Source: Myxococcales bacterium
Lineage (GTDB): Bacteria; Myxococcota; UBA727; GCA-2721815
Length of the DNA stretch: 49,526 nt
NCBI GenBank assembly: GCA_002721815.1
Contig: PBLQ01000035.1
Coordinates: 1 to 49,526 of the forward strand
Direction of reading: 5' to 3'
The notes beneath the pieces were generated by a model. That model saw nothing but the letters and a program-made list of their open reading frames with translations. It did no database searches and was not told the DNA's origin. Shown here one piece after another: positions 34,695 to 47,582 of this stretch. Numbering within the stretch: position 1 is the stretch's first letter; every line of letters begins with the position of its first letter. The position numbers were made by a program, and so were the translations under genes.

Positions 34695-37600
34695 CTAGTC
34701 ACAGCTTCCTGCACTGGAGCCGCCAACAGGGACATTGTTTTCAAGTGCTTCATAACAAGAGCCCTCTTCATAGCTGATGCTGCATTGGGTCTCGCAACTT
34801 GAGCCACTGAGCGTTTCGGTGGGTCTCAGGGCGATGACGTTTTCGTAACCAGCGCAATACAAGGCATTTTGGTTATCATAGAGAAGATCGATGGCATTGC
34901 TGTTCGCTTCGTCAATAATCGCGGAGGGGATGCCCGAACCCGTGAATACCAGCCAAATTGTGGTCAAGGCTTGTCCCGGCGTGCCCACCAAGGAACCCGC
35001 CAGTGGATTGCCATAGCCACTCATGGTGAGAAGCCCCGTTGTAATGGAATAGACCGCTAGGGCACCGCCAATGACGGGGACCGCGGCGCCCACTGCGTTG
35101 AAAGCGCTATCAACGATGAGGCCCGCGGCCTTTTGATTGTACCTCGATTTTGCTGCGCCGGTATTGGCCGATTGCCCTTTGATTATATACCCGATGCCTT
35201 TAGCGGCTTCTAGGCCGGCTCCAATGAAGCCCAATGTTTTGGCATTGCTGGTATCTAATGTATTAAAAACCTTCGTTTGTAATCCTGCACTTCCGAATTG
35301 GGCAAGGGTGAGACCCGCGATACCCATGTCCAATGCAACGGTCACTGTGACCAAAGCGCTTCCTGCCACGTCGCCTGGATTATCCCAGCTCAGGGCTGCA
35401 ATTTCCATGGCGCCAAAAACGATGGTGAGGGGGGCGGACACGAGCTGGGCAGAGTTACTAAAAATGGTTTGAAGTTTTCCTTTTTTGGTGGTTTTTAAGG
35501 CGTCATCAATCAGATCACAATTGTCGGCGTTTGGTTTGAAGGGCAGCTCTTTCCCATCAGCGTCAAATTGAGGCTCGTAAACAATCGTTTGCGTGGCTAT
35601 CTTTTTATTTGTTTTGACGTAGATGGGGTTTTGGTTTTTGCTGGCATCAATGGTGAGATCCTGCGTATCGTACGCAAAAGTCTTTTTGTATTCCGCCACG
35701 ACCTTAACGGCCTTTTTGGAGCTGTTGCCAACCCCAGTGGGGTGCATCTTCAAGACGAGGTCATCGTTCTCAAGTAATTTAATAGTTTTAGAGTCGGGGA
35801 TAAGGTTACCGTAGTCAAGGGGTTGGCCGGCCAGGGGAGAGAGCCGCACAGCGTGAACCACATTGTTGGCGATATCGAAGGCGCTTCCTATGTCTTCAAT
35901 TTCATCCAAGACAACGTCAATGTTGTTCAGCTCAAACCCGTTACCTGTTTCTGAAATGCTGGTGGCGCTGATGACATTTTCGATGAACACTTCTTTGTCG
36001 TAGCGTCGCACCAAAGGGTCGCCAGGGAGCGTGTGCACCGATGTGGTGTGCTCGTACCATAAGCAGTTATCCATATTGTCGCCGCAATCGATTTTGTCTA
36101 AATGCGTCATGGTTTTACGTGCGGAGTCGGTGAGCAGCAACAGCGCATGAAAGGAATCATCGAAAAGGTCCACGCCAATTTCAGCGAAAGATTTATCGGG
36201 ATCTTTGAGTGCGTTTAAAACCCCAATTTTAAACTGGCCCGATGCACCGTGTTGCCGGTCGACCATTTTGACACCGCTGTCCCAATTTAAAATGACGGGA
36301 ATGGGGCCATCCCCTTGATTGGAGTCACCAACATTCATCAACGCATCAGATACTTCACCCCAGGAATAGGCGTCATCGCCTTGTTTGGATTCCAATTTTG
36401 TAAAAAGTTCCGTGTGCAAAATAGGAATATCACTGGAGGAACCGGTCAATTGAAAGTTGATTGACTCGGGGTCCAGGGCGCGTTGTACCTCTTCGGAACC
36501 ATTGTTAATCTCCCACACGGGCGAGAGATAGAGATAAAGGTTGGATGCCCCTGGTGCATTGTCTTTAAGGGCATCGCTGGGAAGCATGAGGTTAATGTGA
36601 GCCACTTGCTTGCCAGATAAGGAATTCGAGGCCTCAGAATTAAGCGACCCTTTGGCCGTGCCCGCATACACCAAGGTCCCTTCGTCAAGATTGGTGATGG
36701 GCAATTCTGGCGGGGTGTCAAAATGATAAAATCGGAATTTAAAACCAGGCAATTTATAGGTATCGATGCTCGAATGATGCGCTTGGGCAGAGGCGTCAAA
36801 AACCACTTGGTAGGTGAACTGGTTATCATTAAAAGGGGCTACTTGTTGCGGGTGAAAAGAGAAGAAATAGGGATTGTCGTCTTCATCTCTAACGACCTTA
36901 CTGCTGAGGTTGTAGCAGTTCGCGCGATATTTGTTCCATTGGGTCCAGTACCAAAAACTATACTGCGTGGGTGCGAGGCATCCGGGATTAGAATGGTATT
37001 CGTAAGAATCACTCCAAGGCCAACTGTCATCATAGGTGGCTTGAATTTCATCACAATAATCGTTTTGGCCTTCCTCCTGTATTTGCCAATTCAATTGTTG
37101 AAGGGTGGACTCGTGTTGGTCGCCATTCTTTAGATCGCTTCTAACGGTATCTTCACAGGATGGTTCGCGGTCCCAGGAACTCCACACCTGGCCACAATCG
37201 TCATAATCGGAAATGGCACTCTGGCCAGTTAGCTTGCCAGAAACCACTTCCTTTTCATAAGTAATGAATCGCTTGGGGTGATCGGTGCGCCACGTAACAC
37301 AGCCCTCTTCTCCATTATCGCAGACGCCTCCAGCGCCACCGCTCACACCATTGCCGGCCCCTCCACCGCTGTTGGCATTGTTTGAACTCGTATTGGCTTG
37401 GAAGGCAGCCGCTAAATCTAAACCGTCCTTGAGTCCGTCGTTATCGCTGTCAGGGTCTAAAACCGAGACCAAGCCATCTCCGTCAAAGTCACCGAGCGGT
37501 GCCAGTTCTTTGCCGTCCATCCAACCATCGTTATCACTGTCTCGGTCGAGGAGGTTGGGTATCCCATCGCCATCGCTGTCGGGGACGGCCCCAGTAATAC

Positions 37601-47582: not shown

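What the first reader, a model, noticed from the sequence alone, without database searches (positions are those of the whole stretch)
34695..47582. A 4,295-residue lipoprotein combining LTD, Cys repeats, propeller, MopE, PKD and TSP3 modules with a hydrophobic C-terminus
The domain order is visible directly and the frame has no break over 12.9 kb. The modules are individually known from surface proteins, but I know of no described protein with this whole order. The gene occupies about a quarter of the window, which argues for strong selection. It may be an adhesin or a calcium-stiffened arm that carries a terminal effector.
Basis: partly seen in the sequence, partly recalled or inferred. Interest (0 to 1): 0.62.

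Follow-up and report, generated by a model that had tools for sequence, protein, structure and literature searches.

The report
Giant surface lipoprotein with in-genome paralogue
A 4,295-residue bacterial outer-surface lipoprotein built from disulphide-rich and calcium-binding modules, with one distant whole-length sister in the same genome; it is most likely a long adhesive or scaffold protein of a myxobacterium-like cell, unusual in its module order and its unmatched end domain but ordinary in kind.

Summary
One uninterrupted frame on the MINUS strand (47582..34695, ATG, RBS-like ACGAGG) encodes a 4,295-aa lipoprotein precursor. Modules in order: Asp/Pro/Ala-Gly linker, LTD, nine 28-aa Cys repeats, seven DUF4215/TIGR02232 Cys repeats, two propeller-like regions, one more DUF4215, MopE-type loops, PKD-like stretches, TSP3, and an 870-aa C-terminal region with hydrophobic helices. 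DUF4215/TIGR02232 exceed curated cut-offs; LTD and TSP3 fall just short; PKD rests on motif only; the second propeller is supported by a partial model (best PDB match CylK, Z 17.8).
This answers the chimaera worry for residues ~690-4295. I found no third member in 194 other genomes of the phylum (profile searches) or, with much lower sensitivity, in other collections.
Neither toxin domain nor adjacent immunity gene was found; the C-terminus is shared by both paralogues. Best reading: a surface-anchored, disulphide- and calcium-stiffened adhesin/scaffold. The 'terminal effector' idea is unsupported. New variant of a known kind; moderate-low interest.

The parts
34695..47582 (-). whole gene, 4,295-aa lipoprotein precursor (P1)
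   Evidence: single open frame, ATG start, RBS-like ACGAGG
47535..47582 (-). lipoprotein signal peptide, residues 1-16, lipidated Cys17 predicted (LMA|C)
   Evidence: sequence shows directly
46875..47534 (-). Pro/Asp-Ala-Gly-rich linker with a small Cys-rich insert (residues 17-236)
   Evidence: sequence
46347..46874 (-). LTD, ExeM-type (residues 237-412)
   Evidence: Pfam LTD E=1e-7 (just below cut-off), NCBIfam ExeM N-terminal part E=1.9e-12
45483..46325 (-). nine tandem 28-aa Cys repeats DCxGxWGG...DxCGxCDxDPxNDCxQ (residues 420-700)
   Evidence: TRF period 84; unit alignment and pN/pS
44547..45482 (-). array of seven DUF4215/TIGR02232 Cys-rich repeats (residues 701-1012)
   Evidence: above curated cut-offs
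43458..44546 (-). beta-rich region, probable first propeller (residues 1013-1375)
   Evidence: conserved with the paralogue; no fold evidence of its own, model pLDDT < 50
42081..43457 (-). second beta-propeller (residues 1376-1834)
   Evidence: partial AF2 model, pLDDT 60-79 for part; PDB match CylK Z 17.8; weak profile hits in other genomes of the phylum
41793..42080 (-). single DUF4215 repeat and Cys-rich spacer (residues 1835-1930)
   Evidence: best TIGR02232 stretch 1845-1881
41253..41792 (-). three MopE-type CDGxDNDCDG loops (residues 1931-2110)
   Evidence: motif; paralogue hits PF11617 below cut-off
40455..41252 (-). insert without family match (residues 2111-2376)
   Evidence: no Pfam/NCBIfam match apart from a MopE fragment at its edge
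40239..40454 (-). two further MopE-type loops (residues 2377-2448)
   Evidence: motif
39033..40238 (-). PKD-like / Ig-like stretches (residues 2449-2850)
   Evidence: motif WGDGT...HxYxxxGxYxV...DxxG only; weak NCBIfam NF058578 E=2.8e-4; no Pfam hit
38043..39032 (-). region without family match, beta-rich by eye (residues 2851-3180)
   Evidence: conserved with paralogue
37428..38042 (-). TSP3-type calcium-binding repeats DxDxDG (residues 3181-3385)
   Evidence: PF18884 E=4e-5, just below cut-off; motif
37311..37427 (-). Gly/Ser/Asn linker (residues 3386-3424)
   Evidence: sequence
35526..37310 (-). C-terminal region, first part, no credible family match (residues 3425-4019)
   Evidence: shared only with the paralogue
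34863..35525 (-). hydrophobic Gly/Ala/Val helices (residues 4020-4240)
   Evidence: hydropathy peaks at aligned places in both paralogues
34698..34862 (-). Cys-containing tail (residues 4241-4295); no MYXO-CTERM tag
   Evidence: MYXO-CTERM model not hit

Best explanation
P1 is a very large outer-membrane-anchored lipoprotein that works as an extended surface adhesin or scaffold. Shown from sequence: a lipoprotein signal and lipobox at the N-terminus; long arrays of Cys-rich repeats; acidic calcium-type loops (MopE, TSP3); propeller-like regions; a hydrophobic-helix C-terminus; and one full-length paralogue. Inferred: after Sec export and lipidation at Cys17 it reaches the cell surface, perhaps by the type II system whose secretin the genome encodes. 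The N-terminal Cys arrays then form a disulphide-locked stalk, the propellers and the PKD-like region act as binding or spacer heads, calcium stiffens the MopE and TSP3 parts, and the C-terminal domain, carried outward, docks to a partner surface, membrane or neighbouring protein. The paralogue is translationally coupled to a second giant secreted protein and lies next to a DUF481 barrel gene, which suggests that such proteins act in surface assemblies.
For: Signal peptide and lipobox. DUF4215/TIGR02232 arrays above cut-off. 187 Cys, 78 of them in residues 413-1012, and D+E 16% against K+R 4.5%. Propeller fold for part of 1376-1834. Paralogue Q with the same order: 28% over 689-2109 at E=3e-109, 29% over 2998-3744 at E=4e-48. 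Q stop and Q2 start overlap as ATGA, and DUF481 follows. Type II secretin present, 477.7 bits, and 13 MYXO-CTERM places in the genome. Precedent for a Cys-rich repeat stalk presenting a head on the surface: TraA, proposed in PMC3325183, with surface anchoring shown in PMC11980579. Purifying selection on the 28-aa units, pN 0.18 vs pS 0.66.
Against: No localisation, binding or calcium data exist. The C-terminal region (870 aa) has no detectable relative except the paralogue, and its model failed (mean pLDDT 25.8), so its role is a guess. Modules of this kind are common on the surface but no binding specificity follows from them. Surface exposure rather than periplasmic display is inferred.
Confidence: 0.6

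Rival explanations
1. The stalk delivers a C-terminal effector: the hydrophobic helices insert into the membrane of another cell and act as, or pass on, a toxin, as in contact-dependent or polymorphic toxin systems.
For: N-terminal anchoring with the C-terminus furthest out; several Gly/Ala/Val hydrophobic helices in the last 280 residues of both paralogues.
Against: No toxin, pre-toxin or pore-former family found in the C-terminus; no same-strand gene follows, the next gene is a convergent JmjC-type gene 37 bp away; in Q the next gene is a 2,867-aa secreted protein, not a small immunity gene; the C-terminus of both paralogues is alignable and diverged about as much as the rest, whereas polymorphic toxins swap it.
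Confidence: 0.12
2. A structural envelope or matrix scaffold (periplasm or extracellular matrix) rather than an adhesin: it links the outer membrane to a layer and has no binding partner outside.
For: Same modules; many other giant Cys-rich frames in this genome suggest a shared structural coat.
Against: Propellers and PKD-like parts are usually binding modules; precedent of Cys-rich stalks is a surface receptor.
Confidence: 0.2
3. An enzyme whose catalytic site lies in a propeller (CylK- or lyase-like), the rest being display.
For: Best PDB match of the second propeller is CylK, Z 17.8, 244 residues, 18% identity.
Against: Hits to many non-enzymatic propellers at Z 14-15; no sequence match to any solved structure; the CylK catalytic residues Arg105 (other domain) and Tyr473 (PMC8916777) were not located here.
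Confidence: 0.04
4. Assembly or annotation artefact (chimaera, repeat collapse).
For: Draft genome of 74 contigs; window is a whole contig; tandem repeats present.
Against: No frame break; the paralogue on another contig has the same module order; repeat units are distinct, highest pair 90.5% over 84 bp; codon use is near that of its neighbours.
Confidence: 0.03

Closest known systems
Proteins with TIGR02232 / PF13948 (DUF4215) Cys-rich repeats, abundant in this order
   Same: Multiple repeats above curated cut-offs; often in giant frames (4,484, 3,832 and 3,190 aa in three relatives).
   Different: Those relatives fuse the array to other parts (RHS-like, beta-helix-like), with no match to the propeller or C-terminal parts of P1.
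TraA of Myxococcus xanthus (surface receptor with Cys-rich stalk and MYXO-CTERM; PMC3325183)
   Same: Idea of a Cys-rich repeat stalk on the cell surface.
   Different: P1 has no PA14 hit, no TIGR04201 repeat hit and no MYXO-CTERM; it is anchored at the N-terminus.
ExeM-type extracellular nucleases (LTD at the N-terminus)
   Same: LTD stretch matches the ExeM N-terminal part.
   Different: No EEP-type nuclease domain is found in P1.
CylK beta-propeller (PDB 7fh6, 7ron)
   Same: Propeller fold of residues about 1500-1780, Z 17.8.
   Different: Only 18% identity; CylK has a calcium-binding partner domain and catalytic residues not sought here.

Membership tests
Bacterial lipoprotein | N-terminal signal peptide with lipobox and Cys | tested here: met
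   MKQLLGMVGLCLALMA|C, hydrophobic stretch, lipobox LMAC; read by eye, no signal-peptide predictor available
TIGR02232 / DUF4215 repeat protein | repeats above the curated cut-off | tested here: met
   148.4 bits vs 20.8; 77 bits vs 27
LTD (PF00932) | score above gathering cut-off | tested here: inconclusive
   32.8 vs 34.3 bits, E=1e-7, 109-position profile nearly fully covered
Bacterial TSP3 repeat (PF18884) | score above gathering cut-off; DxDxDG loops | tested here: inconclusive
   23.7 vs 25 bits, seven motif matches by pattern
MopE metal-binding motif (PF11617) | score above gathering cut-off | tested here: inconclusive
   five motif copies; model 24.4 vs 27 bits in the paralogue only
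PKD domain | Pfam PKD hit | tested here: inconclusive
   motif visible, no Pfam hit up to E=10, which HMMER filters can cause
Beta-propeller | four-stranded blades arranged in a ring | tested here: inconclusive
   residues ~1500-1780: strands at pLDDT 60-79, PDB Z 14-18; whole ring and first propeller not modelled
MYXO-CTERM protein | C-terminal tag TIGR03901 | tested here: not met
   no hit in P1 nor among the 13 places in the genome
TraA-type receptor | PA14 domain, TIGR04201 repeats, MYXO-CTERM | tested here: not met
   none of the three in P1
Polymorphic / contact-dependent toxin | C-terminal toxin domain with adjacent immunity gene | tested here: not met
   no family hit in the C-terminus, no same-strand downstream gene
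CylK-type enzyme | N-terminal Ca-binding domain with Arg105 and propeller Tyr473 | not tested
   only the propeller fold was compared

The most novel reading that the evidence does not exclude
P1 and Q define a lineage-specific family of giant surface lipoproteins whose 870-residue C-terminal domain is a new membrane-active or partner-docking fold, displayed at the far end of a disulphide- and calcium-stiffened stalk for contact with prey or kin.
Probability: 0.15. Interest if true: 0.6.

Novelty: new variant of a known kind. Interest (0 to 1): 0.33.

Why it matters
If the C-terminal domain proved to be a docking or membrane-active fold, this would give a new way for Myxococcota-like cells to touch other cells, and a two-member system in which it could be tested. 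As it stands it mainly adds a new module order, one orphan domain and a well-defined pair of paralogues to the large stock of modular surface lipoproteins.

Tried and rejected
Reading the plus strand at the given coordinates gives a frame full of stops. Scans of 85k-species genome contigs with the C-terminus and with the two-sequence alignment found no relative; these use a few short peptide patterns, so sensitivity for distant relatives is low. Viral contigs, plasmids and phages: none. Phylum-wide profile searches with the C-terminus, its hydrophobic part and the middle region: only P1 and Q, other rows being short E > 0.01 matches or one TSP3-like stretch. Giant DUF4215 frames in four relatives of the order were read and do not share the architecture. 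AlphaFold of the C-terminus failed and of the first propeller too. The Pfam DUF1824 hit to residues 3953-3996 (E 0.007) is below cut-off, partial, and not seen in the C-terminal piece of the paralogue: taken as chance. Antisense ORFs inside the repeats were taken as by-products of the repeats. The promoter scan did not exceed shuffles. Literature searches for DUF4215 and for giant proteins in Myxococcota gave nothing useful.

Full report
What is there. The finding's frame exists but lies on the minus strand: 47582 down to 34695, 4,295 codons and a stop. Read forwards the same stretch is full of stops. The ATG at 47582 is preceded by AAAAACGAGG and opens a signal peptide ending LALMA|C. The gene stands alone: a TPR gene diverges upstream (47817-49205 +) and a JmjC/cupin gene converges downstream, 37 bp from the stop. 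Codon use is close to that of its neighbours (distance 0.085) and GC3 (0.52) is a little lower than theirs (0.56), so nothing marks it as foreign.

Modules. Family searches give DUF4215 (77 bits, cut-off 27) and TIGR02232 (148 bits, cut-off 20.8) above their cut-offs, LTD (32.8 vs 34.3) and TSP3_bac (23.7 vs 25) just under. MopE loops are seen five times as CDGxDNDCDG; the Pfam model reaches 24.4 bits (cut-off 27) in the paralogue. PKD is a motif reading only; Pfam gives nothing at E up to 10. The 28-aa repeats number nine by pattern. Seven units exactly 28 aa apart differ by pS 0.66 and pN 0.18, so they are old and under purifying selection; similar units occur in at least three other genes of the genome, with copies on average more alike within a gene than between genes (0.645 vs 0.576 nucleotide identity). 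The protein is strongly acidic (D+E 16%, K+R 4.5%) and holds 187 Cys, 78 of them in residues 413-1012.

A whole-length homologue. The genome (G000, 4.6 Mb, 74 contigs; the window is its contig 35) holds a second such gene on contig 2, 18767-31063, plus strand, 4,098 aa. BLASTP aligns P1 689-2109 with Q 399-1860 (27.8%, E=3e-109) and P1 2998-3744 with Q 2725-3463 (29.0%, E=4e-48); MopE loops match at 41-54%. Q also begins with a lipoprotein-like signal (LLLTAC) and ends with the same hydrophobic-helix region. Q lacks LTD and the 28-aa repeats; its N-terminus is one longer DUF4215 array. Because the order recurs on another contig, a chimaera is unlikely for residues about 690-4295; for 1-690 the evidence is the unbroken frame and the distinct repeat units.

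Surroundings of the paralogue. Q's stop overlaps the start of the next gene (ATGA), which encodes a 2,867-aa secreted protein with LamG, cadherin and TSP_3 hits. Its C-terminus (Cys-x-Cys, hydrophobic stretch, Arg cluster) resembles a MYXO-CTERM tag to the eye but was not among the 13 places that model finds in the genome. A DUF481 barrel gene follows. This suggests, without proving, a surface assembly.

Distribution. Profiles of the C-terminal region, of its hydrophobic part and of the middle found only P1 and Q with clear significance among 195 genomes of the phylum. The propeller profile finds weak hits (E 1e-4 to 1e-2) in ten other genomes, limited to short stretches, most in the second propeller. 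Genomes of the same order carry giant DUF4215 frames (4,484, 3,832, 3,190, 2,463 aa), but these were read and are different proteins. Pattern scans of genome and viral contigs, and tblastn of plasmids and phages, gave no relative of the C-terminus; the pattern scans are insensitive to distant relatives. So 'restricted to one genome' holds only for what is held; the window's genome is the only one of its family there. The 13 MYXO-CTERM places, a tag reported as universal in Myxococcota (PMC11980579), make that phylum likely.

Structure. AlphaFold with two rows gave a usable part only for residues about 1510-1770 (pLDDT 60-79). Against the PDB this part matches propellers, best CylK (Z 17.8, rmsd 4.1, 244 residues, 18% identity), others at Z 14-15. 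CylK's C-terminal domain is a seven-bladed propeller (PMC8916777). The C-terminal model is uninformative (pLDDT 25.8).

How it probably works. Shown: lipoprotein signal, Cys arrays, calcium-type motifs, part of a propeller, hydrophobic C-terminal helices, a paralogue, and the presence of a type II secretin in the genome. Inferred: export, lipidation, transfer to the surface, a stiff stalk and a binding role. Precedent for a Cys-rich stalk presenting a head on a myxobacterial surface is TraA, for which the authors proposed it (PMC3325183); P1 is not a TraA (no PA14, TIGR04201 or MYXO-CTERM). LTD has no settled role; in ExeM it is dispensable for extracellular DNA degradation in vivo (PMC6085458). 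The effector rival fails on the absence of a toxin family, of an adjacent immunity gene and of C-terminal swapping between the paralogues, but the hydrophobic helices keep it alive at about 0.12.

Verdict. A real, intact giant gene; a new module order with one distant in-genome paralogue and an unmatched 870-residue end domain; otherwise a known kind of modular surface lipoprotein. Interest 0.33.

Noticed in passing
G000:C28:13105-27756 (L030/L031), G000:C29:1-16512 (L032), G000:C33:1-11405 (L034), G000:C46:44022-54265 (L035): The genome carries several other giant or tandem Cys-rich frames (4,883, at least 5,504 and about 3,800 aa; three adjacent DUF4215 lipoprotein-like genes on C46). The C28 frame ends in repeats that look HEAT-like to the eye.
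   Followed up: partly
L011/L012, G000:C2:18767-40558: Operon-like run: giant lipoprotein Q, then a 2,867-aa LamG/cadherin/TSP_3 protein starting with an ATGA overlap, then a DUF481 barrel gene.
   Followed up: partly
L065:7004-16336 (+), G006 contig 11: A 3,110-aa frame that joins a lipoprotein-like signal and DUF4215 array to RHS/YD-type repeats, in another genome of the same order.
   Followed up: no
window:32905-33819 (+): Biopterin-dependent aromatic amino acid hydroxylase (E=3e-74) between a GH5/endoglycoceramidase-like gene and a JmjC/cupin gene.
   Followed up: no
window:31569-32957 (+): GH5 cellulase-fold protein whose N-terminal half matches endoglycoceramidase I (E=5e-19, far below that model's cut-off).
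   Followed up: no
window:26698-30111 (+): 1,137-aa protein with a CarboxypepD_reg domain and a CehA/McbA metallohydrolase (PHP) domain above the NCBIfam cut-off.
   Followed up: no
window:24257-24332 (-): tRNA-Ala (GGC) lies inside the mechanical ORF 23211-24581 (-), just upstream of ORF 24401-25894 (+), so the start of the former is probably over-extended.
   Followed up: no
G005, G007, G009, G011-G015 (same order): One family of the same order has genomes of only 0.3-1.8 Mb, some over 90% complete, against 2.8-7.7 Mb in its sister families; it nearly lacks the DUF4215 repeats.
   Followed up: no
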